From Vicia villosa (Eukaryota > Streptophyta > Magnoliopsida > Fabales > Fabaceae): a stretch of DNA of 64,000 nt. Each line of letters starts with the position of its first letter. Positions within the stretch are counted from its first letter, which is position 1. The notes below the pieces were generated by a model. The model saw nothing but the letters and a program-made list of their open reading frames with translations. It had not been told where the DNA came from and ran no database searches. The position numbers were made by a program, and so were the translations under genes. Positions 15,601 to 63,611 of the stretch are shown here, piece by piece. The DNA lies in assembly GCF_029867415.1 (NCBI RefSeq), contig NC_081182.1, positions 15,002,497 to 15,066,496 on the forward strand, written 5' to 3'.

Positions 15601-15699
15601 AAATCTCAACGTGCATATTAACCAAACAAAGGACAATCAACCACACACTAGTATTTCTAATCATCATTAAATAGTTGTCTACAACTGTCATCTAGATAC

Positions 15700-36014: not shown

Positions 36015-36718
36015 TAACAAGCTATACAAGGCGATCGCTCGGATCCAGTCCAAAAAGATCAAAACAAACAAAAAAGGCTAGTTAAGCATTAACTTAACCA
36101 AATGAACTCGTAACCTCCTATTGTCCCAACCTCTATACACTATCATGTCTATATCATATCTAATATATTCTTATTTTTTATATCATTACCAAAACTCTTG
36201 TCATTTCTGTGTTGCCAAATTTCATAGACGCATTATGTAGCTGCCTGTTTCAAAACCATAGCCTGATTGCCTTTGCCTTTGCTATTCTGAACTATCCACT
36301 CGATCTCCTGCTTCCACCCTTCAGGTTTGTGTTGAATTTGGATCCAATTCAAAACCTTTTCCCAAATAGTGCTCATCGCCTTACATTCAAACAGTAGGTG
36401 TTGTTGACTCTCCACTTCTATGCAAAAATAACACCTCGTATTATCGATCAACCCTTATTTATGAAGCCTCTCCTTTGTTGCCAATCTCTCGTGGCACGCT
36501 ATCCACCTTTAGGGTGATATATTGCAGTGCATAATACATCATCTTCATGTTGAAATTTTGTTGTTAAGCCATTTTATTTCAAGTTGGTATCACGTTGATG
36601 CCATCCCTTTGTTTGAGAATATTTTACATAATCCATGAGTAGTTATCTTTCACTTTCACATCCATCAGGGTTTGCTTCCTTAAGTAGTAGATATGCACCC
36701 ATTTCACCCATAAACTAT
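36015..36718 (-). pseudogene. L1-type LINE fragment (left part), split by the Ty3 element
   Basis: The minus-strand frame at 36451-36233 encodes DNTRCYFCIEVESQQHLLFE followed by C, the zf-RVT C-x2-C...H...C motif of plant LINEs, then IWEKVLNWIQIQH. Further right the text reads SLWVKWVHIYYLRKQTLMDV with stops. The LINE is cut at 36718 by the Ty3 element and continues at 52424 (LNLVVWNKMNLVKLL). The 3' end lies near 36015. Confidence 0.75.
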
Positions 36719-37702
36719 TGTTAGCTGAAGATTTCGTCTTGTAATATTTGTCCTTCGAAGAAGTGAAAAATCGAAGGAAAGATGGTTACTGATGGCCATC
36801 CCTTAAAAATAAAAGATGGCTACTGATGGCCATGCTTCGAGAATAAAGATTTCTAAGTTCGTTATGAAGATAATGAATACTGAAAGCTAGCGAAAGTATG
36901 TGTCTTCGGGGACTTAGATAAAATTTATAAAATATATTCAAGTATTACTACTTAGCATGTTTTCGTAGTGTTTTTTACACTGCCACGCGTCGAAGACAGA
37001 CTCAGGCGGGAAGATTCGAAATTCGAAGACGGTTTCGTAACTGTCCAAGAAACAGATGGCATCGCTGGAAGTTCTTATGAGAGACGTGGCAGCAGATTAG
37101 TGTAGGACCGTTAAGGTCGAAACTAGTATAAATAGGAGTCTTAATGTTAGGATTCTGTGTGTTCATCTTGTACAAATCACTCACATATTTACTCAAGTAT
37201 CAAGCGTTAAGAGAAAGAGTTCGCTGAGAAAATGTACGTATGACACCACCACTTTAATACATGTGTATTATCTTTCGTTTTCGAATATCTTTCAGAATTA
37301 CTGCATTCCATTTACTTCTTGCCATTTACATTTCTGTATCTTTACTTTAATGTCATTTACTTTCGAATTACTTTCATGTCATTTATTTTCAAAGTCTTTA
37401 ACGTTTCTGCATTCTAAGATTCTTTACGTTTTAACAGTCCTTTTAGTTTCATATGTTATGTTACTTATCTTTTCATTAAAATCATACTTACATATAACAA
37501 AGTGATTATCAAGATTACTTGTTCTTTAATCGAACAACGCTTATTGACGAAGACGAATCATGAATATGGTTCAAATGAACATTGATAACAATCTTTTTGA
37601 CTATGTGTCCTAGGATCAATCTAGTCGATCCTGCGAGTAACCAAATCATATTTATTATAGTTAGGAAGACTAGCGGTTGTTTACCGGAAATCACCGTAAA
37701 CA
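36719..37702 (+). repeat. 5' LTR of the Tat element
   Basis: TATA box TATAAATA at 37137-37144. An internal near-duplication, GATGGTTACTGATGGCCATC / GATGGCTACTGATGGCCATG, occurs at about 36781 and 36815. Confidence 0.93.
37137..37144 (+). promoter_or_regulatory. LTR promoter TATA box
   Basis: TATAAATA in the 5' LTR; the same sequence is at 51848-51855 in the 3' LTR. It should drive the genomic RNA of the Tat element. Confidence 0.75.
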
Positions 37703-37705
37703 AAT

Positions 37706-37724
37706 TGGCACGGCCTGGTGGGAC
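37706..37724 (+). promoter_or_regulatory. primer binding site of the Tat element
   Basis: TGGCACGGCCTGGTGGGA begins four bases after the 5' LTR. TGG is the complement of a tRNA CCA end, and GGTGGGA has the form of a T-stem, so a tRNA primer is expected; I could not name it from memory. Confidence 0.65.
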
Positions 37725-37837
37725 AGTGTCAAGCGGATTGTTTTAATCAATTGCTTTATTTTTGTCTAGACAATATCAAGACCTTGTATGAACCTTAGGA
37801 ACGGTAAATTAACGAACAGTGCACAACCGATTCCCAA

Positions 37838-37885
37838 ATGAAGGTACAACAGGAAAATGGTCGTTACGGCCAGTGCAGGGGGTGA
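37838..37885 (+). promoter_or_regulatory. upstream ORF overlapping the gag start
   Basis: ATG at 37838 opens a 15-codon frame ending TGA at 37883-37885. It overlaps the gag ATG (37857) in another frame and could lower gag initiation. Confidence 0.4.
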
Positions 37886-40800
37886 TCAAGATCCCCCACA
37901 AGGTTCAGGATCAGGAGCGGCAAATTTGACTTCCACTCAAGGAACACGGGATACAACGAGTCCAAATGGATCGAGACCTGCAGATAATTCCCAGGCCATG
38001 CCTGAAAATAATACAGGACCCTCAGGGACTATTCTAGTTTCAGTGTCGACAACCGCACCCTCATCCACAAGTGCAGAGGACTTACCGTTTTCCTCGACAA
38101 ATGCTGCAAACAATTTGTTTGGTCAAGGCACGAATTCTGCTTTCGAATGGAGACCAAATAATCCATATGGAATGCCGTACCAATATGGAACAGGCGTACG
38201 AGGGGCAGGACCTATATATGCCCCAACTAACAATGCGACATTTTCACCGAATGTTGGTTCAGTGGGTCGAAGTGCACACAACACTAGTTTTTCTACCCAG
38301 ATGCCCCACTTTACCACAAATAACCAAGCAGCATTTCGACAAGAAATGGATGCAAGCAACCATGATATGCTAGGGGCTTTGGCCAGAGAATTGACTTCAA
38401 TTTTAAACCCACTAGTGACAAATATTGCTACTACAAATAGGGAAAACGTGGAGACTTTCCAAAAGATATCATCTCAAATGGATCGAATGGCAGAGTTCAT
38501 GGGAGTAACACCACCTAGAAGGAAAGACAAACAACCTTCGAATTAAGAAGAGAGGCCCATTATGGAACGTGTACAAGATATAGTTCTGTTATCTAGGACA
38601 GCCACTAGGGATGTAGGCCCCTCACGAAGAACAGAGACGATCGAAGGAACTCCAGTAATTAACTTAGAGGCTTCAAATCAAAGAACCATCCCCGTTCGAC
38701 AGGAAACGGAGGAGGAGCGACCCAGATTAAGGATTGTGGGTAGGAACGAACACCCAGATGAGGTTGTCCAAAGAGTCAGAAGAGAAAATCTGGCTACAGA
38801 AAATAACTTAACTGCCATGATAGAAAGGGTTATGGCCAATAATGGCCTTAGTACTGGACTTAGACGTCCAAATTATACATCCCCTATATCAGATTATATC
38901 ATGCAGACAGAATTGCCTAGGGGCACTAAGGTACCCAAATTTACAAAATTTTCAGGCGAAACTAATGAGTCAACGGTGGAACATATTGCTAGATATTTGA
39001 CAGAAGCAGGAGACTTAGCGGGAAACGAGGATTTAAGGATCAAATATTTCCCTAGTTCGCTGACAAAAAATGCCTTCATTTGGTTTACTACTTTGCCACC
39101 AAATTCGATAGATGCGTGGGCATACTTAGAAAGGTTGTTCCATGAGCAATTCTACATGGGCCAAACTAAGATAAGTTTGAAAGAATTGGCCAGTGTTAAG
39201 AGAAAATTCACAGAAACAATTGATGACTACTTGAATAGGTTCCGTCTGTTGAAATCAAGGTGTTTTACAACAGTCCCAGAGCATGAACTTGTCGAGATGG
39301 CTGCGGGGGGTCTAGATTATTCAATAAGAAAGAAACTAGATACCCAATACCTTAGGGACATGGCCCAATTAGCAGACAGGGTTCGATAGGTCGAACGTCT
39401 GAAGGCAGAAAAAGTTAGGGCAAATAAAAGTTATAAGAAGGAAAGGGTAGCGTACGTCGAAGCCGAGGACGCTGATGATGAGTCTTTCAATGACTCATAT
39501 AGCCCTGAAGAAGTCGAAATAGACTTGGCTGAGTTGAAAGAGGCGCCACCTTATGCCTGCAAATTGCTAAATCCTGCAAATGGAAAAAACCCAGTAGAAA
39601 ACGATAAGAATGATAGGTTCCCTAAGAAAACTTATACATTCGACGTTACCAAGTGTGATGAAATATTTGATTTACTGGTAAAAGATGGCCAAATGATACT
39701 GCCTCCAAATTCCAAAATTCCTCCGTTGGAACAACGGAAGAAAAGAGGTTTTTGTAAATATCATGGTTTTTTAGGCCATAAAACTTCTCAATGTTTTCTT
39801 TTCAGGGATCTAATTCAAAATGCTATCAATGATGGGAGGTTGAAGTTTGCTGACAAGACCAAGAGTCACATGAGGGTCGATACCAATCCCCTGAACATTG
39901 CTGACGCTAGCCTCTGTGAGGTAGAAGATATCAACATGGTGGAGGCATCTGAAGTCGAAGTTGTGGAAACTAAAACAATGTTCAATGGAAAGCAGGCTAC
40001 TGAAAGCCTAAATGGTGACATAGTCTTCAATACTGATGTTGAAGAATCTTCCAAGACAGAGATAACTGAAGCATCGAAGGAAGAAAACAGTGAGGCCACT
40101 GAAGACCTCAGGATGAAACTCCAGAAAATCCAAATCTCTGAAGTTCCTCCAGCAGTGGTTAACATGGTCAGCGCCAGACGCCTAGTGTCTGAGTTTGGCG
40201 AACTAGAGACATGGCTGACGAGGCAAAATGGGGGCACCGAAGTTCCTCCAAAAACTGAGAGCCTCAAAGACTACCTTTGGAATTGCCATGAGAGAAATGG
40301 TGGTAAAAAATGGATGTGTCCAAGGTGTTCGATCATGCTTAATCGAAAGGTCGAAGCCAACTTCGAAAAGGCTCGACGTGAAAGATGGGAACACCCAGGA
40401 AGAGAGCCAAATCCCTTACTACAACTCTACCCAAGGATGGAGGAAAGCTTAGTAGGATTTTTGGTCAGATGCCACAAAGGAAACACTGAAGTTGCTCTGT
40501 GCCCCAGATGTGGGGCAGTCTATGATGAAATGCTAGCACGATCATTCGAACGTGTGTACTGCTACATGAGTCGAGAAACTCAGGGGTTGCGTCCTAACCT
40601 GTACGGTTTCGACATATGGACTCCAACAGAGAGGCCTGATAGCCCACACCCTAGAGCTCGAAGGGTAACATTCAAAATCCCCGCAGATCCACCCAGGGAT
40701 AGGTGGGTGCAAGCTGATGCAAGAACCAACAAATGGCGAAGTTGGGACCAAGGAGGGAGAACTGCAATGGCATATAGGAAACAATTTCAAAGGCCAAGTC

Positions 40801-41921
40801 GAGAGGCGTATCGATTGGAGAATTATAAAGGAAAAAATCCTATGTCTCGGTCCCAGTGGAGAAGGCATCAGAGAATAAAAAAGGCTCAGAAGGAATACAG
40901 GCCAAGAGAAACTGGAGAATCTAGTAGCAACCAAGTCCTACACCAGGGGGCAAAATCAAACAAACCTCCGGTGGAACGCAGATTATTCGAAGCTGAAAAA
41001 CTCTTGGATGAAGAAGAAAAGATGCATTCAAATTCCTGGAAAGAAGAGGATAGAATGACAAATGATTTTGATTCTGATGGAGTGCCATCTATAAACTTGA
41101 ATTGCAATGTTGTATCCGTACTCCCTCACGAGTTTAATCAGGAAACCGAAGTAGAAGACTGTGAAGAGGCTGATATCGAAGAAATGGCAAAACACAGACC
41201 TGTGTGTTACTATGTGCTGAATAATGGTGCAGTTGAAGAACAGAATGCTTTCTTCGAAAGGCCTGATGAGGGTATGCGAAATCATTTGAAGCCACTCTAT
41301 ATCAGGGCAAAGATTGAGAATGTTGGCATTAATAAAGTCCTAGTTGATGGGGGAGCAGCAGTGAACCTAATGCCTCAATACATGCTAAAGAGAATTGGTA
41401 TGTTCGATACGGATATAAGGCCACATAACATGGTTTTATCTAACTACGAAGACAAAATAGGACAAACACTGGGAGTCGTTCAGGTCAATTTGACAGTAGG
41501 CTCAATTACCAGGCCAACTATGTTTATGGTTATACCAGCAAAAGCAAACTACAACCTTTTGCTTGGTAGAGAATGGATTCATGGGGTAGCAGCTGTGCCC
41601 TCAACAATGCATCAGAGGGTGACAATTTGGAGGGAAGATGGTATAGTGGAGAATATCGAAGGTGATCAAAGTTACTATGTGGCTGAAGTCAACCAGGTGA
41701 ATAAAACCAACTTCGATAGGAACCTGGCAAACATAGGCCCTTGTCATGCTGCAGAAGAAATGTATACCCCAAATAAGAATGCATTGTACTATTTAACTTT
41801 ACACCCAAATGGATTCCAATGGGATAGAGAGATCATGGATGGTCCAGCAGATACAGCACCATTGGAGAATTATCCGACAGTACGGCCAACAGGCTGGGAC
41901 GATGACATTAATCATGTCTGA
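37857..41921 (+). pseudogene. Tat element gag-protease frame with two nonsense codons
   Basis: A single reading frame of 1355 codons, intact except for TAA at 38544-38546 and TAG at 39387-39389. Both fit CAA/CAG-to-stop changes, since the protein resumes without loss on each side. Residues 1-229 are low-complexity (Gly/Ser/Asn-rich). The Retrotrans_gag capsid region lies about 38880-39360 (KYFPSSLTKNAFIWFTTLPP; LERLFHEQFY; DDYLNRFRLLKSRC). A knuckle-like FCKYHGFLGHKTSQC is at about 39750. Two CH-x8/9-CPRC modules follow at 40284-40328 and 40470-40511. The aspartic protease is near 41340 (VDGGAAVNLMP, with Gly in place of Ser/Thr after the catalytic Asp, which I recall as usual in this lineage) with the partner motif YNLLLGREWIHG. 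The frame ends in TGA overlapping the pol ATG. It supplies capsid and protease for virus-like particles. Confidence 0.88.
40284..40511 (+). other. tandem CH-x(8,9)-CPRC putative zinc-binding modules
   Basis: NCHERNGGKKWMCPRC and RCHKGNTEVALCPRC lie about 60 residues apart between the gag knuckle and the protease. Each has four potential metal ligands, Cys-His and Cys-Cys. I do not know a named domain for them. Confidence 0.6.
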
Positions 41922-44900
41922 GTCTTCGTTCTTCGAAAAGATTTCGGCCTATGTGGCCGAGAACAAAAGGAAGGCGGCTCTCGAAGCCGAACTATCAGAT
42001 ACAAAGATAGATGCAGTTCTAACCAAAGAAGGAATAACAGAATTGGAGATACGTACGAGTTTCGAACTCTCTGAAGACACGGCTCCAGACGAAGAGATCA
42101 TAAGAGAAGAACCAAATCAAAGGTTAGATGCAATATACGACGAGGAACCTTTGGGATTCGAAAAAGACCCAATGGCGTCGAACATAAAGATGTTGGCCCA
42201 AGATCCACTTGAAGAGGTAAATCTTGGAGACAATGATCAAAAAAGGATAAGATATATCAGCGCAAAACTAGAACCAGAATTAAAAACAACGGTCATCAAA
42301 ATGCTGAAAGAAAACAGAGATTGTTTTGTTTGGGATTATGATGAGATGCCTGGTCTAGGAAGAGACTTATTCGAATTAAAATTACCAATAAAAGAAGGGA
42401 AGAAGCCTATAAAACAAACTCCCAGAAGATTCGCGCCAGAGATTCACTCGAAGATTAAAGCAGAGGTCGAAAGGCTCTTGCGTTGCAAATTTATCCAAAC
42501 TACAAGGTATGTTGAATGGATTGCTAATATAGTACCTGTAATTAAAAAGAATGGCTCATTAAGAGTATGCATAGACTTTCGTGACCTTAATGCAGCTACT
42601 CCTAAAGACGAGTATCCCATGCCTGTAGCGGAAATGCTAGTAGACTCAGCCGCAGGTTTTGAGTATTTGAGCATGTTGGATGGATATTCGGGATACAATC
42701 AAATCTTTATAGCAGAAGATGATGTATCCAAAACAGCATTTCGTTGCCCAGGGGCAATAGGCACTTACGAATGGGTTGTGATGCCTTTTGGTTTGAAAAA
42801 TGCTGGGGCAACTTATCAAAGAGCAATGAATTCTATATTTCATGACTTTATAGAAACATTCATGCAAGTATATATAGATGACATTGTGGTAAAATCTACC
42901 TCAGGTATGAGTCATCTCGATCATCTGAGCCAATCATTCGAAAGAATGAGGAAATATGGCTTGAAGATGAACCCCCTCAAATGTGCTTTCTTTGTGCAGG
43001 CAGGTGATTTCTTGGGTTTCGTAGTCCACAAAAAAGGGATAGAAATTAACCAGAACAAGACAGAAGCCATTGTGGAAACCAAGTCTCCATCCACGAAGAA
43101 AGAACTTCAATCATTATTGGGTAAGATAAATTTCTTAAGGAGATTTATCTCTAACTTGAGTGGACGCACGCAAGCTTTCTCACCTCTACTACGGCTTAAG
43201 CAAGGAAAGTTTGAATGGCGTGCTGAACATCAAGAAGCTTTTGATCAGATAAAGCAATACTTGACTTGTCCACCAATTCTGTCTCCCCCAAATGGGAAGA
43301 AGCACATGCGCCTATACATTTCAGCGTCAGATAAAACAATAGGCAGCATGCTGGCACAAGAAGATGAGAATGGCATCGAAAGAGCCATTTATTACTTAAG
43401 TAGAGTACTCAATGATGCAGAGACTAGATATACTGATATAGAAAAGCTCTGCCTTTGCTTGTATTTCTCCTGTATCAAACTTAAGTATTATATAAAGCCA
43501 GTTGATGTTTACGTTTCATCTCATTGTGATGTTATTAAACATATGTTATCTAAGCCAATACTACATAGTCGAATTGGCAAGTGGGCTTTGGCCCTTACTG
43601 AATATTCATTAATATTTCAGCCTCTCAAGGCAATGAAAGGTCAAATTGTGTCAGACTTCATTGTCGACCATGCGGTGGTTGAGAATCATCAGCATTATGT
43701 GGACTTAAAACCTTGGAAGTTATACTTCGATGGTTCAACGCATAGAGAGGGTACTGGAGTTGGAATGTTGATAATTTCTCCTGATGGAATTCCAACAAAG
43801 CTCAAGTATAAAATCGAAGGTCCATTATGCTCCAACAATGAAGCTGAATACGAAGCATTAATTGCTGGACTTGAGGCTTTGTTAGAATTGGGGGCAACCA
43901 GAGTCGAAATTAAAGGAGACTCCGAATTGGTCATCAAACAATTGACAAAGGAGTACAAGTGTATCAAAGAGAATTTGATCATGTATTTTGTCATTGCAAA
44001 TAGGCTACTCAAAAGATTCGAATATGTGGAATTAAAACACGTATCAAGGGTGAATAACCAGGAAGCAAACGACTTGGCACAATTAGCCTCAGGATATAAA
44101 GTACCAAAAGAAAAGTTGGAGGAATTGATTGAAGTAAGAGGAAGAGCAATGTCGACTAAACTCTCTCCAAGTGATCTAGAGAACTCACAGTTGGGTTATG
44201 CCAACAAAGAAGAATTTGAAGTACTAAATATAGACTCGTTGGCAGACACAGATTGGAGGAGTCCAATTATTAACTATCTGAAAAATCCTTCGACGGATAC
44301 AGATAGGAAAATCAAGTATAGAGCCTTGTCATATTTCCTGATGGGAAATGAATTGTTCAAGAAAACTCCTGAAGGGGTATTGTTGAAATGCTTGGGTGAA
44401 GCAGAAGCATACTTGGCTCTGTCGAACGTACATAGTGGGGCATGTGGTGCACATCAAGCAGGGCCCAAAATGAAATGGCTCTTGTTTCGTTATGGGATGT
44501 ATTGGCCTTCGATGTTAAAAGATTGCATAGAGTTTGCGAAAGGGTGCCAAGAGTGCCAAGAACATGCAGGTATCCAACACGCTCCAGCAAACGAATTAGG
44601 TACGATAGTAAAACCGTGGCCTTTTAGGGGATGGGCATTAGATTTGATTGGAGAAATTCACCCCAAGTCATCTAAAGGTCAAAGGTACATTTTGGTAGGA
44701 ATAGACTATTTCACAAAATGGGTCGAAGCAATACCACTGGCAAATGTGGATCAAGAGGTTGTGATTGAGTTTATTCAGAAACATATTATATATAGGTTTG
44801 GAATTCCAGAAAGTATAACAACCGATCAGGGATCAGTCTTTACTGGACGAAAAATGCAAGACTTTGCCAGAGAAATAGGTTTCAAGTTATTTACTTCTAC

Positions 44901-45522
44901 ACCTTACTACGCTCAAGCAAATGGACAGGTTGAAGCAGCAAACAAAATTATAATTGGCCTTATTAAGAAACATGTGGGAAAGAAACCCAAGAATTGGCAT
45001 AAGACTTTAGATCAAGCACTCTGGGCTTGTCGAACATCTCCAAAAGAAGCTACAAATACAACTCCTTTCCAGTTGACATTTGGACATGATGCAGTACTCC
45101 CAATTGAGATATATTTGCAATCGGTGAGAATACAAAGACAAGCAGACATTCCTCCCAACGTGTACTGGGAGTTAATGATGAATGAGTTAGTAGATTTGGA
45201 CGAAGACAGACTTCGAGCACTGGAAATGATAAAAAGGCAAAAGGAAAGAGTGTCCAGAGCATACAACAAAAAGGTGAAAGGTAAAACTTTTGTTAATAAT
45301 GACTTAGTTTGGAAAGTTATTTTACCTATAGATCGAAAGAATCAGGCACTTGGTAAATGGTCCCCACATTGGGAAGGACCCTTTCGAATCTTAAAAGTAT
45401 TTTCGAACAATGCTTACGAAATTGAAGAGTTAGCAAAAGATCGTAGGATCTTAAGAGTAAACGGGAAATATTTGAAGAGATATAAACCAAGTATGTACGA
45501 AGTAAAGATTACAAAAACGTAG
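41914..45522 (+). CDS. Tat element Pol: reverse transcriptase, RNase H, archaeal-type RNase H, integrase
   Basis: An open frame of 1202 residues from ATG 41914 (first in-frame ATG after the end of the protease frame; the frame itself is open from 41809). RT: FRDLNAATPKDEYPMP, motif LDGYSGYNQI and the catalytic YIDDIVVK (about residue 320). Native RNase H: LYISASDKTIGSMLAQ and following, about residues 470-560. A second, archaeal-type RNase H starts LYFDGSTHREGTGVG at about residue 603, with NNEAEYEALIAGLEAL. Integrase: HHCC zinc finger from VHSGACGAHQ (about 839) to GCQECQ (about 878); DDE triad in WALDLIG (about 909), TTDQGS (about 970) and GQVEAANK (about 1006). The C-terminus WEGPFRILKV resembles the GPF/Y module; no chromodomain. 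All catalytic motifs look intact. The start overlaps the gag-pro stop as ATGTCTGA. Confidence 0.93.
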   Translation: MSESSFFEKISAYVAENKRKAALEAELSDTKIDAVLTKEGITELEIRTSFELSEDTAPDEEIIREEPNQRLDAIYDEEPLGFEKDPMASNIKMLAQDPLEEVNLGDNDQKRIRYISAKLEPELKTTVIKMLKENRDCFVWDYDEMPGLGRDLFELKLPIKEGKKPIKQTPRRFAPEIHSKIKAEVERLLRCKFIQTTRYVEWIANIVPVIKKNGSLRVCIDFRDLNAATPKDEYPMPVAEMLVDSAAGFEYLSMLDGYSGYNQIFIAEDDVSKTAFRCPGAIGTYEWVVMPFGLKNAGATYQRAMNSIFHDFIETFMQVYIDDIVVKSTSGMSHLDHLSQSFERMRKYGLKMNPLKCAFFVQAGDFLGFVVHKKGIEINQNKTEAIVETKSPSTKKELQSLLGKINFLRRFISNLSGRTQAFSPLLRLKQGKFEWRAEHQEAFDQIKQYLTCPPILSPPNGKKHMRLYISASDKTIGSMLAQEDENGIERAIYYLSRVLNDAETRYTDIEKLCLCLYFSCIKLKYYIKPVDVYVSSHCDVIKHMLSKPILHSRIGKWALALTEYSLIFQPLKAMKGQIVSDFIVDHAVVENHQHYVDLKPWKLYFDGSTHREGTGVGMLIISPDGIPTKLKYKIEGPLCSNNEAEYEALIAGLEALLELGATRVEIKGDSELVIKQLTKEYKCIKENLIMYFVIANRLLKRFEYVELKHVSRVNNQEANDLAQLASGYKVPKEKLEELIEVRGRAMSTKLSPSDLENSQLGYANKEEFEVLNIDSLADTDWRSPIINYLKNPSTDTDRKIKYRALSYFLMGNELFKKTPEGVLLKCLGEAEAYLALSNVHSGACGAHQAGPKMKWLLFRYGMYWPSMLKDCIEFAKGCQECQEHAGIQHAPANELGTIVKPWPFRGWALDLIGEIHPKSSKGQRYILVGIDYFTKWVEAIPLANVDQEVVIEFIQKHIIYRFGIPESITTDQGSVFTGRKMQDFAREIGFKLFTSTPYYAQANGQVEAANKIIIGLIKKHVGKKPKNWHKTLDQALWACRTSPKEATNTTPFQLTFGHDAVLPIEIYLQSVRIQRQADIPPNVYWELMMNELVDLDEDRLRALEMIKRQKERVSRAYNKKVKGKTFVNNDLVWKVILPIDRKNQALGKWSPHWEGPFRILKVFSNNAYEIEELAKDRRILRVNGKYLKRYKPSMYEVKITKT

Positions 45523-45762
45523 ATACTCAGGGTACTACGAAAGCCAAAATGGTCAGGCATGTGTCAAAACATATATGTCACATTGGTCAAAATGGCTTTA
45601 CAATCAGAATAGATTGTTAAATGGAAGGAAAAGAGTCTAAAGAGACACCAAAATATTTTTCATTCATAATAGAGTACGTGCATTACAAAGAGATCCAAAG
45701 AACAGGATCTGAGATTACAAAAAGAAAAAAGCATATAAAAAAAACCCTAAGAGAAAAACTTG
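45523..45762. other. spacer between pol and the first antisense gene
   Basis: Convergent 3' ends: pol stops at 45522 and the antisense ORF at 45763. AAAAA-rich in the middle; may hold 3'-end signals for both strands. Confidence 0.4.
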
Positions 45763-46497
45763 CTAGTTAATCCTTTGGTCTAAACCTTCCAAGGACAGCA
45801 CAGGCGAGGGTTCAGCTTCGAACATATCCATGGCTCCAGAAATGCGCATCCTCTTCACTACACCTTTCCTAAGGAAAATGTAACTGAGGAGTCTCCCGTA
45901 TGGAAGACAGGTCACGCTCCCTTGACGGTTGACACCAATGGAGACAGCCTTAACAAGTCCTTTAAAGATCATCAAAGGAATGTTAATTTTCTTCCCTCGA
46001 AGACCACAAAGGATAAACTCCAAGTCTTCAACCATGATGTTGTTTTCATCAATCCTCTGAGGTTGAAAATTTCCCACGAGCATCTGGTGCCAGATCCTGA
46101 TAACTTTGGCACTGAAGCGGTCGTTATCCATAAGAGTTCTCAACATGAGATGAGTAGTCATGTTGAAACTGTTGTCATCAAAAGTTTCCCCAGAGTTACT
46201 GCATCTCATTAGGTTGGCAATAGTGGTGGGAGTGATGCTAAGACGAGCATGTCGAATAGCAGAATCAATGGTGGTCCTACCTTCAGGATCTATGCGTAAG
46301 GACGCATTCATCCAGAATTCTGCCAACATGTTGGGGTAGATAGCACCCTCCAAGACTTCTTCAAAATAGAAGTCCAGTTCTTGATTGACAAAGAGGGTTT
46401 CGATGTTGATGAAGTTACGAACAAGTTCATCCTCAGAAAGTCTGAACTCGTTCTTGAGGAGGGCTTTGATGTTATTAAAGGAAAGAGGTCCAGCCAT
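45763..46497 (-). CDS. antisense ORF of the Tat element, 'putative plant transposon protein'-like
   Basis: 244 codons from ATG 46497 (MAGPLSFNNIKALLKNEFRL); an in-frame ATG upstream at 46575 would add 26 residues. The start at 46497 is preferred because the extension is basic and of leader type. Recognisable text: AIYPNMLAEFWMNASLRIDP, then ITPTTIANLMRCSNSGETFD, and LMLRTLMDNDRFSAKVIRIW. It resembles the domain annotated in legume genomes as 'putative plant transposon protein', of unknown biochemistry. A clean TATA box lies at 46606-46614 on the same strand. No stop or frameshift is visible, so the ORF has been kept open in a young element. Role in the retrotransposon cycle unknown. Confidence 0.75.
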   Translation of the reverse strand: MAGPLSFNNIKALLKNEFRLSEDELVRNFINIETLFVNQELDFYFEEVLEGAIYPNMLAEFWMNASLRIDPEGRTTIDSAIRHARLSITPTTIANLMRCSNSGETFDDNSFNMTTHLMLRTLMDNDRFSAKVIRIWHQMLVGNFQPQRIDENNIMVEDLEFILCGLRGKKINIPLMIFKGLVKAVSIGVNRQGSVTCLPYGRLLSYIFLRKGVVKRMRISGAMDMFEAEPSPVLSLEGLDQRIN

Positions 46498-46605
46498 TGC
46501 AAGGAAAAGAAAGGTTTTTGAGAAAGAAGTTGTGTGTTTTCTTTTTTCTGTGTTTAGTTTGGAGAGAAAGCGCATGAATGAAGAAATGAAGGCAATATTA
46601 GACCC

Positions 46606-46614
46606 TTTATATAG
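46606..46614 (-). promoter_or_regulatory. TATA box of the short antisense gene
   Basis: CTATATAAAG read on the minus strand, about 110 bases upstream of ATG 46497 and 35 upstream of ATG 46575. Confidence 0.6.
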
Positions 46615-46619
46615 ACTGG

Positions 46620-47176
46620 GGATACTGAAGGGTGGTTTTAAATTGTTAATGATTGATTGGACTGCGTTTAGTTTTCCAAAGAGAGAAGTTATGGCTTCCG
46701 CCGTTTCCCGCCCTTGGAAGTTGAGAAGTAATCATGAAACTGATGCACGCACGTCTTAAATTGACGGTTTGGAGAAAGTGACGTCACTGTTCAATAATGA
46801 TTATGGCTAGAGAAGTGGAAACGTCAAGTCTAGAGGCAAGGATGCTGCGAAGGATGTTCAGGGTCTATACGTTGCATTAAATAAAAGCACTGTAGAAAAT
46901 CTAAAGATATATTTTGGCAGAAATTGAAAGATTCGCTAAAGTAGTGCTGGCGAACATTGTAGATATAAACGAAGAAAATAGAAGTCAAGCATACAAATAG
47001 ATGTTTCTACAAAAGCTTCGATTACAAAACGAAAATGCAACAAGTTACAGGATTGGAGACAGCTAGTTAAAATCCTCAGGGAGATTGTTTTTAATCTTCA
47101 AGTATTGAGTTTCCCACGAAGACATACGAAGCTCAATTAGTGCCCGTTGTTTCTTCAATCTTTCGACCTCTGGCAC
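46620..47176. other. spacer between the two antisense genes
   Basis: No supported frame. Probably promoter of the short antisense gene and 3' UTR of the long one. Confidence 0.4.
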
Positions 47177-50100
47177 TTATTTCTGTGCAGTCTCGAAATG
47201 TTTAATCCCCGACTGCACCACTTCGAGCAAATCCTGTTGGTTGGATTTTTGTATGGCTGCCTGACAACGTTCAGCTTCCTTTATCTTGTCCTCAAGTACC
47301 TTTATCTCTTGTTTCCAAGAGTTGATGTTCTTCTCATAATCATCAAAAGCCTTCTGATTTTCTGAATGCTTAAGCTTGAGGGCCTCACCTTGTTTCGTTG
47401 CATCCACAGCAGAGTTCCATGAAGAGTCATGAGAGGCCATTGTCTCAGATAGCTCTTTTTCAACATTTTGCTTTCGAAGAATGTTGGCCTGGAGTTGATC
47501 AATCAGAGAACCTAGCAGAACAATTACCTCCGAAACTTCTGTGGAGACTTGAAGCAAATCTACTTTCTTTAAAAGTTGATTTAAGTTGTGACTCTTAATA
47601 GGTTCCCGGCTGAGAACATCCACAAGATTGACCCCAAAGAACCTCTCTTTTATTTGTCGAAGGAGGCTAGGAATATCTTCCTTGTCACTAGATTCTACAG
47701 TCACAGCTGGAGAGACATCAAGTTCCGAAGGCGAAGAAGTATTCACATTCACGATAGCCTTTAGGAAACTAAGAGGATCAGTTTGCTTAAGTTGTTCCAG
47801 CTCCGAAGGAGTAGGCTTCGCAGGGGCAAGCGTCGAAGTTGTCCCAGGAATGGCTTCTGTATCAAGAGTCGAAGTTCCTTGAGGATCTTGTTTTTCTGGT
47901 TTAGAAGTCTCCTCCATAGCATCTTGCTCCGATGCAGTATCTTCGCTGTCATGTGGTTGTAGGTTCACATTGTCGCTGCCTGAGAATGGGTGATCTTCTT
48001 CCAGATTTTTGTCTTGGTGAGTAGGTGGGGATTCGTCAGTGGATTGGCTTTCTTCGATTGGTTCATTAGGCAATATGGTGGCGGTTGGCCTAGCATCTTC
48101 GAAGACTGGGGAAAGAACATGAGTTTTGTTTTGAGAGGTATCTGTATTAAAACGGAGCAGAGTTAGTCATAAAGATAAGCCTTCGAGGGGTTTATTGACG
48201 AAAGTTAAAGATTGGCGATTACCGTAAAGTTTGTCAACATTAATGGTAAGGCCATGATCCTTAAAACCTGAAGTGGCAGTGCCAGCATCATCCTGCAATA
48301 ACAAGGTAAAATGTCAGTTCAATCATTTAGTTAAAATTACAGGATAATATGTGGGGTGAAACCCAAATACCTTGGTTGGGATATTATCTGGACTTGAATT
48401 ATGACTTTCAACAATGAAAGCATTGCTGGCAACTTTTAAAGGAGATTCTTCAGAGGATGCCTTATCGCCAGGAGAAGCAGCTTTAGAGGGACTTATCTCT
48501 TTCCCTTTTCTTGAAGGGGTAACAGCTTTTTGTTTCTTCCTGTGTCCTTGTCTAGTACGAGGAGGGGATTTATCTTCGCCATCTGAGGCAGCTGTCGAAG
48601 AAACTTTCCGCTTCGAACCTGTTGGGGGTTTCGAGCTCTGGAAAATAGATGATAAGTAAGATGAGTACTACTCACAGATTGTACAAGATTAAGAATATGA
48701 GATGGGTATGTACCGTGGGTTTCTTGTCAGTAATGATGGAGTCACTCTCACTTGGTTTGTTGCTTTTAGATATCCCAGAATCCTTTTGGGCAGGAGCTTC
48801 CTTAATCTTCCTCCTTCGTGCAACAGCTGTAGTTGAAACTGAAATCAGTATATTAGCAAAGAAAAGAAAAGTCAGTCGAAAAGATTGTCTGAATCCAAAC
48901 CTTCAGGTATTGGAGTCAAGACACGAACATGTTCAAGATCTATATGTAGATGTCCTTTGAAAGTATCCAAGGTATGCTTAGTCGGAACCACTCGTTCGGC
49001 GCGTTTTTTAGTACTGTTTTGAAGGTCTTTTAGAACGTTGCCACACACAAACCAATTTGGAAAAGGAGGGCTCAAAGCCACACCAAAATCCGCACTTGGC
49101 AGTGGAGGGAATTTTGGAGGATTAAGTTTGAAAGCCACTTCATAACGTAGTTCTGGTCGAACATACGAGGGCAATTTCAACTTATCTAGTTTGGCGGAAA
49201 ACTTTTCGCGCAAAATGACTGCAGCCTCACGAACGGTCTGACTAAGATCATCAGGCCTGTAGATAGTTTCAAAGAATTTTTGAAAAGCTTGGATTTCTTT
49301 AATATGAGTTGAAGTACCTTTGTGAAAATTCTCCTGCACATCAGCAAAAGCTGCAGTTAGTTCTTGAGCAAGACTATCGGCGTCAAAGATTTGGGAGCTA
49401 TAATAATCCGTCCACCATTGGTGAAAATCTGGTGTAGAGTAAAAAGCAGGTTCGAAAGGAATAGGAGAAAAATTGGTGGTGCCAACGTATTTGTTGATCT
49501 TTGTTTCACATTCTCCTTCAGTCAAGTACAAGGTATGGAAACACATATGGCTCCTTTTCTCATATAAGCACTTGGGTTTTATTTGAACCAACCCAAACTG
49601 TCTCGAGACCAAATTTGGTTGATAGCACACGAGAATACATTGACCTTTTGATGGTCGAAGGCGATGAGAAAATAACCTTGGAGTCAGAAAGGCTTTCCAA
49701 ATTTCCATAGACTCAGTTTGTTGATCTTGAGATGTTGATGGGAATTTTCGAGTAAACCATTCGGGACCTATTGTTCTGTGTACAAACGGGGCCATAGAAG
49801 GATCGAACTGATTACGCTGGGCAAACATCATTGAATACGCCAGAAAGTGTTCACGAAGCTTCCCAGTTTCTTCTTTCGGAGTCAGGTAAGCCAATCTGGT
49901 CCCTTCTATAGTTCGATTCTTGATTTTGCTATCTTCCTCATTGACGTTTCCTCGAAAGGGAAGATGAGTTTCGAATGTAGCGTTAAGCCACAGTTGCAAT
50001 AGCCAGAAAGGACCAGCATAAAGCAAAGTACCGGATTTGTAATTCTTGGTAAGGTTTGCAGCTTCGCTGAGGTTTTCATAAAGAAACCCTAAAAGCAGTT

Positions 50101-50989
50101 GGCTGAGGTTGAGCTTTTTTCCAGCATGCAACTGATTAGCCATGCAAAGGTATCTCTTTGCAACTTGTATGGATCTTGAGCAGAAGGCACATCGTGAGAG
50201 CCATAGCGCTAAGAAAGCAATATGCTCTTCATCGGATACTGCCGTTTCGGTGGTGATATGGTGCTTCTGGATGAATGCAGTATAAGTGACTATCGAGTCA
50301 TTAAAACCAATAGTATCAGTATCCATCTCATTGGGATCGAAGGTTTCGCCAGTTGGTCGAAGTCCTGTAATCGCAGCCACATCGAAAAGAGTGGGGGTAA
50401 CCATTCCACATGGGAGATGGAAAGTGTTGTGAGAAGCATCCCAAAAGTGAACCGCTGCTACTAGCATGGGTTGGTTATATTCTAAGCCTGTTTTTGACAG
50501 TTGAATCAAATCGTATATTCCTAACGATTTCCAGAAGGATTCTTTCTGTTTCTCTACTTTTTCTAGCCAGGCATAGTACAAATCAGGATCTATGGCTAAG
50601 GGAATTGACCTAAACACTTTTACAACGTTGGTCATATAGTTTAACCTAATTTTCGTCAAAGCCAAAGGGGTTACAGTTGAAGTTTCTTCAATGTTAGCAG
50701 ATTTTCCTGAGGGAGAACAACCATCTTCATCTATCTTAGTTTTGCTAACTAATGGTATAGTCTTGTAATAAGCAGGGAAGAATCTATTCAGAGATGAAAT
50801 ATTTTCACCTGGTAACGGACCCATAAAAGCAAGAGATTTTCCAGAAAGTTCAAAGGGAATGATTACCTGGGAAGCGTAAATAGCGCGTATTTCTTCGGTG
50901 TTAGGGTTTGGAATGTGCTCTTGTTCCCCAGACCGTGTTGTTGATTGGAGCTTCAGAACAGGTTGAAGAACATTTGAAGATGAAGCCAT
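47177..50989 (-). CDS. antisense five-exon plant mobile domain (PMD) plus coiled-coil gene of the Tat element
   Basis: From ATG 50989 (MASSSNVLQPVLKLQS), five exons on the minus strand: 50989-48901, 48838-48714, 48637-48371, 48292-48223 and 48141-47177. Introns are 62, 76, 78 and 81 bp, all GT...AG, and the phases fit. Spliced length is 3516 bases, 1171 codons plus stop, with no interruption. Exon 1 carries the aminotransferase-like PMD: IRLNYMTNVVKVFRSIPLAI, FWDASHNTFHLPCGMVTPTL, FDVAAITGLRPTGETF, LALWLSRCAFC. Exons 2-4 encode a basic, Ser/Lys-rich linker (STTAVARRRKIKEAP; KPPTGSKRKVSS). Exon 5 is acidic, then forms a coiled coil (SWKQEIKVLEDKIKEAERCQ). PMD proteins are DNA/chromatin-associated in plants; the Tat lineage is known to carry antisense extra ORFs. 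What this protein does for the element is unknown. The domain call is by motif recognition. Confidence 0.82.
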
Positions 50990-51101
50990 AGAGAGATTTT
51001 GATTAAGAAAGCAAGATTTTGAAAAGATTGAGGATGTTGGTTTTCCGTTGAAGAGGATGAAGAAATAGGAATGAAAGGTTGTATAGAAGTGCAAGACCAA
51101 G

Positions 51102-51109
51102 TATTTAAA
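51102..51109 (-). promoter_or_regulatory. candidate TATA box of the long antisense gene
   Basis: TTTAAATA on the minus strand, about 115 bases upstream of ATG 50989. Confidence 0.45.
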
Positions 51110-51425
51110 GGTTTAACGGAAACTCTTTTTAAATCTTTTGGGTAAAACCCAAAGAACACGTGGCGGCTGGTGATTTAATCCGACGGTGGTTGAATAAATT
51201 GGCTTCACTCCTAGTATGTAGGAGTAATGATCAAGAAGTAAGGTCAAAAACGTGGGAATGTAAGTTATGAGAAGATATCTTTGAAAATGACAAGACGTTT
51301 CGGGAACAGGGTCATCAATGATTATGACGTTAGTCAGCAGTCTTGGAACTCTCAAAGATCAATAAGAAACGAAATCTTATGATGACAAGAAACGCCTATT
51401 TCTGTTGATTTTCGAAACAGACATT

Positions 51426-51439
51426 TATTGGGGGCAATT
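51426..51439 (+). promoter_or_regulatory. polypurine tract of the Tat element
   Basis: ATTGGGGGCAATT directly before the 3' LTR, the usual place for plus-strand priming. Confidence 0.75.
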
Positions 51440-52423
51440 TGTTAGCTGAAGATTTCGTCTTGTAATATTTGTCCTTCGAAGAAGTGGAAAATCGAAGGAA
51501 AGATGGTTACTGATGGCCATCCCTTAAAAATAAAAGATGGCTACTGATGGCCATGCTTCGAGAATAAAGATTTCTAAGTTCGTTATGAAGATAATGAATA
51601 CTGAAAGCTAGCGAAAGTATGTGTCTTCGGGGACTTAGATAAAATTTATAAAATATATTCAAGTATTACTACTTAGCGTGTTTTCGTGGTGTTTTTTACA
51701 CTGCCACGCGTCGAAGACAGACTCAGGCGGGAAGATTCGAAATTCGAAGACGGTTTCGTAGCTGTCCAAGAAACAGATGGCATCGCTGGAAGTTCTTATG
51801 AGAGACGTGGCAGCAGATTAGTGTAGGACCGTTAAGGTCGAAACTAGTATAAATAGGAGTCTTAATGTTAGGATTCTGTGTGTACATCTTGTACAAATCA
51901 CTCACATATTTACTCAAGTATCAAGCGTTAAGAGAAAGAGTTCGCTGAGAAAATGTACGTATGACACCACCACTTTAATACATGTGTATTATCTTTCGTT
52001 TTCGAATATCTTTCAGAATTACTGCATTCCATTTACTTCTTGCCATTTACATTTCTGTATCTTTACTTTAATGTCATTTACTTTCGAATTACTTTCATGT
52101 CATTTATTTTCAAAGTCTTTAACGTTTCTGCATTCTAAGATTCTTTACGTTTTAACAGTCCTTTTAGTTTCATATGTTATGTTACTTATCTTTTCATTAA
52201 AATCATACTTACATATAACAAAGTGATTATCAAGATTACTTGTTCTTTAATCGAACAACGCTTATTGACGAAGACGAATCATGAATATGGTTCAAATGAA
52301 CATTGATAACAATCTTTTTGACTATGTGTCCTAGGATCAATCTAGTCGATCCTGCGAGTAACCAAATCATATTTATTATAGTTTGGAAGACTAGCGGTTG
52401 TTTATCGGAAATCACCGTAAACA
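51440..52423 (+). repeat. 3' LTR of the Tat element
   Basis: 984 bp, about seven differences from the 5' LTR; followed by the target duplication ACTAT. Confidence 0.93.
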
Positions 52424-52523
52424 ACTATATGATTTTCCACTTAAATTTCATAAAAGCTTAACTAAATTCATTTTGTTCCAAACAACCAGGTTCACCATTC
52501 TCAGCCCACCGTGACTTTTAGGG
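52424..52523 (-). pseudogene. LINE fragment (right part), continuation of 36015-36718
   Basis: Minus-strand text LNLVVWNKMNLVKLL...NLSGKSYS leads directly, across the Tat insertion, into SLWVKWVHIYYL. This order is typical of plant LINE ORF2. Confidence 0.65.
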
Positions 52524-58451: not shown

Positions 58452-58705
58452 AAGGGCACATTTTAATGAGATATTTATAGAAAAAAAATTTTGGAACGTG
58501 TGCATTCAATGTATCGAAATATATATATAAAAGATCACGAGTATATTTAAATTAAAAATTTCTTTTTACACGAAATACACGAATTTTAATGAGAGAATTT
58601 AATCTTTTGAGGACATTTAAAATGTTTTGTATAAAAGTTATTGTTTGCATAACAAAATTGGAAGAATTGTTAAAATATGGAAACCTGTAGTATTTTGTTT
58701 AAGTT
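58449..58705. other. spacer left of the copia element
   Basis: AT-rich, no DEFL exon 2 found. Ends in the target site AAGTT. Confidence 0.4.
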
Positions 58706-59140
58706 TGTTGTGAATTGAATACCAAGAACAAAGTATAATAGGGAATTAGGGAGGAGAAGAAGAACACAATATTTGGTTATAACTGCTATTCTTTTACTTT
58801 CTCTTAAAACAAGATTACAAGTTTACAAGAATAACAAATAACCTCTCTCACCCTAAATTAGGATTTGCAGCTTTTCAATGATGAGAGACTAGTATGCTAT
58901 TTATAATAAAACCTAACATACTAACTAATGGGCTTTTTCCACAAGGCCCATTACACAAGTCAACTTAATAAACAAGCTAACTTAACAAATTAGGGTTTAA
59001 ACACTAAAACCTAATTTAACATGCTAACAACCCTAGCATCTTCGACACAAGCATGTGAACAACCTTCGACTTCATGCTTAACCCTGTCGAACCAAGAAGC
59101 TACCCTTCGGCCATACTAGAGTTCGATCCAAAATCTCACA
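58706..59140 (-). repeat. 3' LTR of the copia element
   Basis: TGTTGTGAATTG...AAATCTCACA in plus orientation, 435 bp. Confidence 0.95.
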
Positions 59141-59154
59141 AATCTCCACCTTGG
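59141..59154 (-). promoter_or_regulatory. polypurine tract of the copia element
   Basis: Minus strand AAGGTGGAGATT, next to the 3' LTR. Confidence 0.75.
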
Positions 59155-59183
59155 ATCTAACTCTACAACATCAAGGGAACAAA

Positions 59184-62100
59184 CTAGCTTTCTTCATGCA
59201 GCTTTATCAACTGCATACAGTGGAAAAACTTGCAACTCGGCAATGTCTTGGTGATCATATCAGCAGCATTGTCTTCAGTCGAAACCTTCAGCACTTGGAC
59301 TTCTCCACGCTCGATTACTCCTCTGACGAAATGCAGCCTCACATCAATGTGCTTAGTTCGCTCATGATAGGCTGAATTCTTCGATAGGTGTATTGCACTT
59401 TGACTATCACATTTAACAGTGATACCTCGACCTTGAAGTTTCAGCTCCTTCGCAAAACCTTCAAGCCACAATGCTTCTTTCACAGCTTCAGTTAGGGCAA
59501 TATACTCCGCTTCAGTGGTTGATAGAGCAACAACCTTCTGAAGTGTTGCTTTCCAACTAATTGCAGTGCCAAACATAGTGAAAACATATCCAGAAATAGA
59601 TTTTCTGGAATCCATACAACCTGCATAATCAGAGTCGACATATCCTTCTATTACTGCTTTACTATCTTCACCCAAGGCTCCACCATAAATTAGGACTCTA
59701 TTCAGAGACCCATTTATGTACCTTAAAATCCACTTCAATGCTTGCCAGTGAGCCTTTCCAGGATTCGCCATGTACCTGCTTACAAGACTGACTGCGTAAG
59801 CTATGTCGGGTCTAGTACAGACCATAGCATACATCAAAGAGCCGACTATATTAGCATATGGGATGCTATTCATATAGACTCTTTCGACATCAGTACTGGG
59901 ACACTGATCAATACTCAGCTTGAATTGAGGGTTTGTTGGAGTCACAACTGGCTTCGAATTCGACATACCAAACTTTTCAAGAATCTTCCGTAGATATGCC
60001 TCTTGAGATAAGCATATCTTCGACTTCTTTCTATTTCTCCGAATGTCAATTCCAAGAATCCTGGAAGCAGCTCCCAGATCCTTCATATCGAACTCCTTAT
60101 TGAGTTCAGCCTTCACCCTCATCACATCTTCAACACTGTTGCTTGCTATGAGAATATCATCCACATAAAGCAACAAAATAACAAATGAATTACCAGGTCG
60201 AAATCTGAAGTAAACGCAGTGGTCGAACTGACTTCTAATGAAACTTATGCGTGCCATGAACTTGTCGAATCTCTTATTCCACTGTCGAGGAGATTGTTTC
60301 AGCCCATACAAAGATCTCTTTAACTTGCACACATAATTTTCCTTCCCCTTTTCGACATACCCTTCAGGTTGCCTCATCAGGATCGTTTCATCTAGATCAC
60401 CATACAAGAACGCAGTCTTCACATCCATCTGTTCCAGTTCAAGATCGAACTGTGCCACCATGGCAAGCAACATTCGAATGGACCTATGCTTCACAACAGG
60501 AGAAAACACATCATTGAAGTCGACACCTTCTTTCTGAGTGAAACCCCTTGCAACTAACCTTGCCTTGTATCTTTTCGACGTCACTCCTTCAATTCCTTCC
60601 TTAACTTTGAAAATCCATTTACAGCTGACTAACCTTGCCCCATCAGGTTTCTTGATCAGTTCCCAGGTATGATTATCATGAAGAGATTTTATCTCATCAT
60701 CCATGGCCTTCAGCCATTCAGTCTTATTTCGACTCCTCATAACTTCCTTATAGTCTCTAGGTTCTTCGTCTAGAACCTCACTTGCAGAGATTAAGGCATA
60801 AGCTATAAGATCTGCATATCCAAGTCTCTGAGGTGGCTTGATGACTCTTCTCGACCTATCTCTCGACAATAGGTAGTCATCGTCAGTTTCCTCAACTTCA
60901 GCATCTTCTGCTTCTTCTTCGACTTCATCTGGGATATGCAATTCAGCATCAACATGCTCCACCTCAACAGGAATCTCTACTTGTTCCAGCTCTTCGTCAG
61001 ATGTTTCTGTACTTCGACCAACATCATCAGTTTTCTTAAAAGCCATTTCAGCTTCATTAAAAACTACATCTCGACTGGTGATACACCTCCTGTGACCTGG
61101 CTCTAGGCACCATAGCCTATAAGCTTTGACTCCATCAGGGTATCCCATGAACATGCATTTCAGAGCTCTAGGTTCGACCTTGTCTTGCCTAATGTGAGCA
61201 TAGGCTACGCAGCCAAATACTCTCAGTTTGTCGAGATCTGGTGGATGTCCCGACCAAACTTCTTCAGGTGTCTTCATATCTAACGCTGTCGAAGGACATC
61301 TATTTATCAGATATGTTGCTGTCGAAACAGCCTCAGCCCAGAACACCTTCTTTAACCCCGCACTAGTCAACATGCATCTGACTCTCTCCAAAATAGTTCG
61401 ATTAAATCTTTCAGCCAAACCATTTTGCTGTGGAGTACCTGCAGTAGTTCTGTGCCTTGCAATACCAAAGGCAGCACAAAAACTGTCGAATGCCTCATTG
61501 CAAAATTCAAGGCCATTGTCGGTTCTCAACCTCTTGACCTTCCTGCCAGTCTGATTTTCAACCAGAGTCTTCCAACTTTTGAAATTCTCAAAAGTTTCAT
61601 CCTTAGTCTTCTGGATGAATACCCATAATTTTCTGGAATAATCATCTACTATGGATAGAAAATACCTTGCTCCTGAATGTGATGCACACCTTGCAGGCCC
61701 CCAAAGATCAGCATGGATGTAATCAAGGGATCCATGTGTTCTTTGTTTGCCTTTGTTGAACTTCACTCTGCAAGATTTTCCAAGTACACAGGGTTCACAA
61801 AACTTCAGCTTTTCGACTTTGTCTCCACCAAGCAGATTTTGTTTCCCTAATTCGACCAGACCCCTTTCACTGACATGGCCCAATCTCATGTGCCAGATTT
61901 CTGTCTTCGACAAAGGTTTCGTGGATACAACATTTGTCGAACCACTTACAACTTCAGCCTCAAGGGTATATAAGCCTTGTTTCTTCACGCCTCTCAAGAC
62001 TTCCTTCGACCCCTTCATGACTCTTAGGATACTTTTCTCTCCTTGGAAAACATATCCTTTCTTGTCGAATTCACCAAGAGAAAGCAAATTTCTCTTCAAA

Positions 62101-63146: not shown

Positions 63147-63171
63147 CTTCTCCACGCTCACCGCACCAATT
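63147..63171 (-). promoter_or_regulatory. very short leader and atypical primer binding site of the copia element
   Basis: Only 25 bases separate the 5' LTR and the gag ATG. The first text after the LTR is AATTGGTGCGGTGAGCGTGG, which has TGG but not the usual initiator-methionine-tRNA site TGGTATCAGAGC. Confidence 0.6.
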
Positions 63172-63606
63172 TGTTGTGAATTGAATACCAAGAACAAAGT
63201 ATAATAGGGAATTAGGGAGGAGAAGAAGAACACAATATTTGGTTATAACTGCTATTCTTTTACTTTCTCTTAAAACAAGATTACAAGTTTACAAGAATAA
63301 CAAATAACCTCTCTCACCCTAAATTAGGATTTGCAGCTTTTCAATGATGAGAGACTAGTATGCTATTTATAATAAAACCTAACATACTAACTAATGGGCT
63401 TTTTCCACAAGGCCCATTACACAAGTCAACTTAATAAACAAGCTAACTTAACAAATTAGGGTTTAAACACTAAAACCTAATTTAACATGCTAACAACCCT
63501 AGCATCTTCGACACAAGCATGTGAACAACCTTCGACTTCATGCTTAACCCTGTCGAACCAAGAAGCTACCCTTCGGCCATACTAGAGTTCGATCCAAAAT
63601 CTCACA
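63172..63606 (-). repeat. 5' LTR of the copia element
   Basis: 435 bp; minus-strand TATA box TATAAATA at 63371-63364 is the likely promoter. Confidence 0.95.
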
Positions 63607-63611
63607 AAGTT

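What the first reader, a model, noticed from the sequence alone, without database searches (positions are those of the whole stretch)
47177..50989. Antisense five-exon PMD/coiled-coil gene inside a young Ty3 retrotransposon
Four GT-AG introns of 62-81 bp on the strand opposite to gag-pol join five minus-strand exons into one uninterrupted frame of 1171 codons, with consistent phases. The element is young (about seven LTR differences in 984 bp), so intact splice sites and frame mean recent selection or very recent origin. Antisense extra ORFs are known in the Tat lineage; a complete spliced PMD plus basic linker plus coiled-coil gene is, as far as I know, poorly characterised. Introns on the minus strand survive retrotransposition because the sense genomic RNA does not splice them. 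PMD host proteins act in silencing, so the cargo could be a silencing suppressor (inference).
Basis: partly seen in the sequence, partly recalled or inferred. Interest (0 to 1): 0.88.

Follow-up and report, generated by a model that had tools for sequence, protein, structure and literature searches.

The report
Spliced antisense gene inside plant retrotransposon
A recently inserted plant jumping element carries, on the strand opposite to its own replication genes, a real five-exon gene and a smaller second gene; such extra cargo is a known kind of thing, but this intron-containing form is unusual and its job is unproven.

Summary
A Ty3 element at 36719-52423 (984-bp LTRs, 7 differences, 5-bp target duplication) carries a minus-strand five-exon gene for 1171 aa with a clear plant mobile domain (PMD). 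It is not chance: the spliced protein aligns end to end with pea and clover proteins, and relatives continue across junctions 2, 3 and 4 at the same residue (16 of 24, 14 of 29 and 4 of 30 that cross them). Junction 1 is weaker (0 of 8); two close relatives carry an intron-sized in-frame insert there. Amino-acid changes between copies are conservative, which suggests protein-level selection. Corrections: the stop at 47177 is premature (22 of 25 relatives reaching it run on 35-40 residues), and gag is broken, so this copy looks non-autonomous. Both have a TATA-like box 114-120 bp before the ATG. Antisense ORFs in Tat elements and PMD ORFs in Ogre are published; a spliced multi-exon one I did not find in the papers searched. 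Best reading: an accessory gene with its own promoter whose nuclear protein interferes with PMD-dependent silencing; that last step is inference. No transcript data, own-genome search or usable fold was obtained.

The parts
36719..37702 (+). 5' LTR, 984 bp; TSD ACTAT at 36714-36718
37842..39386 (+). gag frame, broken by stops at 38544 and 39387; Retrotrans_gag domain in the piece 38547-39386
   Evidence: stops; PF03732 E 2.6e-12
39390..41921 (+). end of gag and protease frame (weak protease match, below cut-off)
41797..45522 (+). pol frame: RT, RNase H, second RNase H-like domain (RVT_3), integrase
45763..46497 (-). second antisense gene, 244 aa, PF20167-like (below cut-off)
   Evidence: 12 relatives 64-90% identical
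46606..46613 (-). TATA-like box (TATATAAA) 114-116 bp before the ATG of the second antisense gene
47066..47176 (-). untranslated remnant of the conserved C-terminal tail behind the premature stop
47177..47179 (-). premature stop, 38 codons before the end of most relatives that reach it
   Evidence: 19 of 25 run on exactly 38 residues
47177..48141 (-). exon 5 (acidic stretch, helical tail)
48142..48222 (-). intron 4, 81 bp
   Evidence: junction matched in 4 of 30
48223..48292 (-). exon 4
48293..48370 (-). intron 3, 78 bp
   Evidence: junction matched in 14 of 29
48371..48637 (-). exon 3 (basic linker)
48638..48713 (-). intron 2, 76 bp
   Evidence: junction matched in 16 of 24
48714..48838 (-). 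exon 2
48839..48900 (-). intron 1, 62 bp
   Evidence: no exact match in 8, intron-sized inserts in P0003 and P0062
48901..50989 (-). exon 1 with the start codon
49412..50521 (-). plant mobile domain PF10536 (residues 157-526)
   Evidence: converted from residues
51102..51109 (-). TATA-like box (TTTAAATA) 120 bp before the ATG of the five-exon gene
51440..52423 (+). 3' LTR, 984 bp; TSD ACTAT at 52424-52428

Best explanation
A Tat-lineage Ty3 retrotransposon of a vetch-like legume carries an antisense accessory cassette of two genes between pol and the 3' LTR. The larger is a five-exon gene for a plant-mobile-domain protein with a basic linker and a helical tail. The genes are read from their own promoters, not from the LTR. 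The introns persist because the packaged sense RNA shows them reversed (CT...AC) and cannot splice them. The protein most likely works in the nucleus and in trans, competing with or rewiring the host's PMD-phosphatase silencing module, so that family copies, including defective ones such as this, stay transcribed. Shown here: gene structure, homology, signs of protein-level selection, two antisense genes. Inferred: promoters, splicing in vivo, nuclear site, silencing target. My estimates: real gene under selection in the family 0.95; expressed as spliced mRNA 0.8; nuclear 0.6; acts on PMD silencing 0.35-0.4.
For: Structure and PMD. Full-length relatives in pea and clover. Junctions 2-4 recur at the same residue. 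Conservative amino-acid changes in 10 of 10 comparisons. TATA-like boxes at 114-120 bp before both ATGs, the only matches of my four patterns on that strand in 45500-51600. Basic linker with HRKKQK. Precedents: Grande gene23, antisense, nuclear, own promoter (PMC7264820); host PMD proteins MAIN and MAIL1 bind PP7L and repress TEs, and genic PMDs are proposed to derive from TEs (PMC7156037).
Against: No RNA evidence was seen. Junction 1 has no exact spliced match (0 of 8). This copy's protein is truncated and a 98% identical relative (P0031) has a changed frame near the same end. No interaction, localisation or fold data (models at pLDDT 37-38). The antisense position in other copies was not seen. 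The selection test uses database proteins, which favour open frames.
Confidence: 0.4

Rival explanations
1. A real accessory gene, but its protein serves the element's own cycle (nuclear import, chromatin docking or integration-site choice, or control of its own transcription) and not anti-silencing.
For: Same anatomy and selection evidence. The 2020 review and the 2025 Retand paper favour a regulatory or accessory role for antisense proteins.
Against: Nothing specific; a PMD is shared with known silencing proteins, which tips the balance slightly.
Confidence: 0.33
2. A passenger: a captured gene now decaying, with no use to the element.
For: This copy has a premature stop and a broken gag; P0031 has a frame change.
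Against: Homology over the whole length to pea and clover proteins and conservative changes in 10 of 10 comparisons point to long-term constraint in the family.
Confidence: 0.12
3. The antisense RNA, not the protein, is the working part (double-stranded RNA or interference with sense transcription).
For: Antisense transcription in such elements is reported and an RNA role has been suggested (PMC7264820).
Against: Conservation is at protein level; an RNA role needs no open frame or splicing.
Confidence: 0.08
4. The five-exon model is a wrong join of two or more separate antisense ORFs.
For: 83 GT..AG pairs of 60-100 bp exist in the 1001-bp region. Junction 1 has no exact match. Many database models hold only exon 1 or only exons 2-5.
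Against: One continuous protein in pea and in clover covers exons 1-5. P0003 and P0062 join exons 1, 2 and 3 in one frame with intron-sized inserts.
Confidence: 0.05

Closest known systems
Ogre-lineage (Tat, Ty3) extra ORFs with PMD (Neumann et al. 2019, PMC6317226; section 13 and passages read)
   Same: Tat element with two RNase H domains before integrase and a PMD-bearing extra ORF (57% of Ogre there)
   Different: That survey took uninterrupted ORFs of at least 250 codons; here the PMD gene is five exons, antisense, with a second antisense gene beside it. Whether this element is Ogre was not settled.
Retand antisense ORFs (Vicient 2025, PMC11963269; parts 1-3 of 5 and passages read)
   Same: Antisense coding region between pol and 3' LTR, long internal region
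   Different: There TRP28 (PF04195) dominates and introns are not mentioned; here PMD and a PF20167-like protein, no PF04195 match
Grande gene23 (maize), as described in PMC7264820 (parts 1-2 of 3 read)
   Same: Antisense accessory gene with its own promoter; nuclear protein
   Different: No PMD or splicing is mentioned there
Arabidopsis MAIN, MAIL1 and PP7L silencing module (PMC7156037; abstract, introduction, passages)
   Same: Share the PMD family
   Different: Host genes that repress TEs; this gene is TE-borne, with a long basic linker and helical tail
Antisense genes of HTLV and related viruses (PMC8622228, passages; PMC11963269 background)
   Same: Works like: antisense, spliced transcripts (HTLV-2 to -4), nuclear regulatory proteins (HBZ, APH-2)
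   Different: Unrelated proteins and elements; analogy only

Membership tests
Tat lineage of Ty3 elements | Two RNase H domains; in angiosperm members the extra one lies between RNase H and integrase | tested here: met
   RT_RNaseH 501-603, RVT_3 644-763, rve 942-1038 of the pol frame; criterion from PMC6317226
Ogre | Position in RT/RH/INT tree | not tested
   No reference sequences at hand
Ogre | Gag-protease and RT frames separated by a spacer or intron | tested here: inconclusive
   Stop-to-stop frames overlap (39390-41921, 41797-45522); no splice test made
Ogre | Primer site for tRNA-Arg (as PMC9289625 gives it) | tested here: inconclusive
   Sequence behind the LTR read but not assigned to a tRNA
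Ogre | PMD in an extra ORF (57% of elements) | tested here: met
Retand | Antisense ORF with TRP28 (PF04195) between pol and 3' LTR | tested here: not met
   Antisense genes present, but neither matched PF04195 at E up to 0.01
Plant mobile domain family PF10536 | Match above the curated cut-off over the whole domain | tested here: met
   121.9 bits against 34.9, profile 1-346 of 347
Antisense accessory ORFs between pol and 3' LTR (aORF-3R) | Position and orientation | tested here: met
Antisense accessory ORFs between pol and 3' LTR (aORF-3R) | Present in most copies of the family | not tested
   Own-genome search did not complete (nine tries, last)
Transposase_32 PF20167 (second antisense gene) | Match above the curated cut-off | tested here: inconclusive
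   32.6 bits against 45; 8 of its 12 relatives carry PF20167 as precomputed domain, but the three rescanned were also below the cut-off
PMD-PP7L silencing module | Physical interaction with PP7L or MAIL-type proteins | not testable with these tools
   Needs co-immunoprecipitation or two-hybrid

The most novel reading that the evidence does not exclude
A Ty3 element runs a two-gene antisense counter-defence unit: private promoters, a multi-exon mRNA whose introns make it look like a host transcript and so less prone to silencing, and a PMD protein that acts as a decoy in the host PMD-phosphatase silencing complex and keeps even gag-defective family members active.
Probability: 0.2. Interest if true: 0.88.

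Novelty: new variant of a known kind. Interest (0 to 1): 0.6.

Why it matters
If true, plant retrotransposons carry host-style multi-exon genes on their silent strand, where retrotransposition cannot strip the introns. Surveys based on uninterrupted ORFs (at least 250 codons, or 600 bp) would have split such genes and missed parts of them. It would also make testable why the PMD, a host silencing factor today, is so common in transposons: perhaps as an antagonist, or a co-opted tool, of the pathway that later domesticated it.

Tried and rejected
Fold route: AlphaFold models of the second antisense protein and of exon 1 had mean pLDDT 37.7 and 36.8, so no fold search was made. No PDB sequence match for exon 1 at E up to 10.

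Common origin of the two antisense proteins: a short stretch looks alike by eye (TPT...GETFD), but profile-profile comparison gave no support (probability 0.2%). Not claimed.

Other DNA copies: 5 and 20 pattern matches in viral contigs and genome contigs, none a relative. The search of the window's own genome did not complete, so copy number, dN/dS and the context of other copies are missing.

Primer site: the sequence behind the 5' LTR (TGGCACGGCC...) was not assigned to a tRNA.

A second PMD in the window (23717-25279) was considered as copy or source; tblastn with the five-exon protein found no similarity there at E 0.01.

Full report
Observation. Minus-strand exons 50989-48901, 48838-48714, 48637-48371, 48292-48223 and 48141-47177 are separated by GT-AG introns of 62, 76, 78 and 81 bp and give 1171 codons and one terminal stop. 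Introns are AT-rich (32-38% GC) against exons (41-45%), and reading on from exon 1 without splicing meets two in-frame stops. The protein has a PMD at residues 157-526 (E 4.5e-35).

Element. LTRs 36719-37702 and 51440-52423 (984 bp, 7 differences) and a 5-bp duplication ACTAT bound the element. With a rate of 1.3e-8 per site and year (recalled), 7 differences mean roughly 0.3 million years. The pol frame 41797-45522 has RT, RNase H, a second RNase H-like domain and integrase, the order given for angiosperm Ogre and Retand (PMC6317226 section 13). The gag frame has stops at 38544 and 39387, so this copy cannot make its Gag-protease by plain translation. The closest proteins for exon 1 are from Vicia villosa (87-91%), so the source is probably a vetch or near relative (inference).

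Is the gene real? The spliced protein aligns over residues 10-1171 with a 1154-aa pea protein at 38% identity and over 1-1169 with an 1100-aa clover protein at 29%. Three protein searches gave 62 relatives, 12 of them for the second antisense gene. Over the other 50, a junction counted as matched if at least 6 of 15 residues agree on both sides with no gap. Junction 2: 16 of the 24 that cross it. Junction 3: 14 of 29. Junction 4: 4 of 30. Junction 1: 0 of 8. The rest either diverge too far or are gapped (P0062 at junction 2, P0004 at 3, P0049 and P0053 at 4, P0003 and P0062 at 1). At junction 1, P0003 and P0062 run through in-frame inserts of 21 and 20 residues; P0062 has 25 more at junction 2. 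These have the size of the introns, so other copies probably hold introns at the same places that their models read through. Two models, P0001 and P0002, end just inside intron 1; P0004 and P0030 begin exon 2 at the predicted acceptor. All of these are predicted models; no RNA support was seen.

Selection. Without DNA of relatives I could not compute dN/dS. Instead I compared observed one-step amino-acid differences with random single-base changes of the window's codons (transitions weighted 4:1). In 10 of 10 comparisons (3 for exon 1, 1 for exons 2-5, 6 for the second gene) the observed changes were more conservative; 0 to 2 of 2000 simulations reached the observed value. The comparisons share the window sequence and are not independent, and protein databases favour open frames. 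The full-length match to pea and clover is the stronger argument.

(1) The stop at 47179-47177 is premature: 25 of the 50 relatives reach this point; 19 run on for exactly 38 residues, 3 for 35 or 40, and 3 for 2, 7 and 21. The frame behind the stop still matches the lost tail. Intact copies therefore exist. The closest relative of exon 5, P0031 (98%), shifts frame shortly before this point and is not among the 25. (2) A second antisense gene, 45763-46497, 244 aa, with 12 relatives at 64-90% identity and a sub-threshold PF20167 match (32.6 bits against 45). (3) Each antisense gene has a TATA-like box 114-120 bp before its ATG, the only matches of my four patterns on that strand in 45500-51600. 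Both lie outside the LTR, which fits private promoters, as reported for Grande gene23 (PMC7264820).

Mechanism. Best guess: an accessory gene, expressed as a spliced antisense mRNA, giving a nuclear protein (basic linker with HRKKQK) that acts in trans on the host's PMD-dependent silencing. Arabidopsis MAIN and MAIL1, PMD proteins proposed to derive from transposons, bind PP7L and repress TEs (PMC7156037: abstract, introduction and passages). A TE-borne PMD could compete with them. A role in nuclear import or integration is nearly as likely. Antisense RNA alone is less likely, because the constraint seen is on the protein. The coiled coil is weak: 36 of 2000 shuffles for residues 1060-1171, 219, 785 and 264 of 2000 for three shorter stretches, and 10 of 2000 for the tail of the pea relative.

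Known or new. [quoted passage not shown] PMC11963269, parts 1-3 of 5). PMD was found in extra ORFs of 57% of Ogre elements and in Gypsy consensuses of ten species (PMC9289625, passages). Those two ORF surveys used uninterrupted frames: at least 250 codons, or ORF Finder with at least 600 bp. I found no description of a multi-exon antisense PMD gene in the eight paper searches that bear on it; the lists were cut (15 of 27, 10 of 1,125, 12 of 187), most papers were seen as listings only, and the library lacks most subscription papers, so this is not proof of absence. The 2020 review itself asks for a look at antisense and spliced transcripts. Hence: new variant of a known kind.

Limits. The own-genome search did not answer in nine tries (last). 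Structure models were unusable. The genomic context of relatives is unknown; only cluster sizes of up to 115 sequences suggest that they are repeats too. The clade within Tat is open: PMD points to Ogre, but the spacer between its sense frames is not evident, the primer site was not assigned, and no RT tree was made.

Noticed in passing
23717-24664 and 24875-25279 (-): Pieces of a second, decayed PMD gene (PF10536, E 4e-12 and 5e-11) with no tblastn similarity to the five-exon protein.
   Followed up: partly
58704-63608 (-): A Ty1/copia element with an open 1352-aa frame (59187-63242) and 100% identical 439-bp direct repeats at both ends: probably a very recent, possibly autonomous insertion.
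   Followed up: no
25622-27044 and 29337-30758: Direct repeat of about 1.4 kb, 97% identical, 3.7 kb apart, possibly LTRs of a short element; no coding domain was looked for beyond frames of 70 aa.
   Followed up: no
41797-41921 (+): The gag-protease and RT frames overlap in different frames; whether a frameshift or an intron joins them, as in Ogre, was not tested.
   Followed up: no
15671-16270 and 19708-20715 (+): Frames with the zf-RVT domain, probably remains of LINE-type elements.
   Followed up: no
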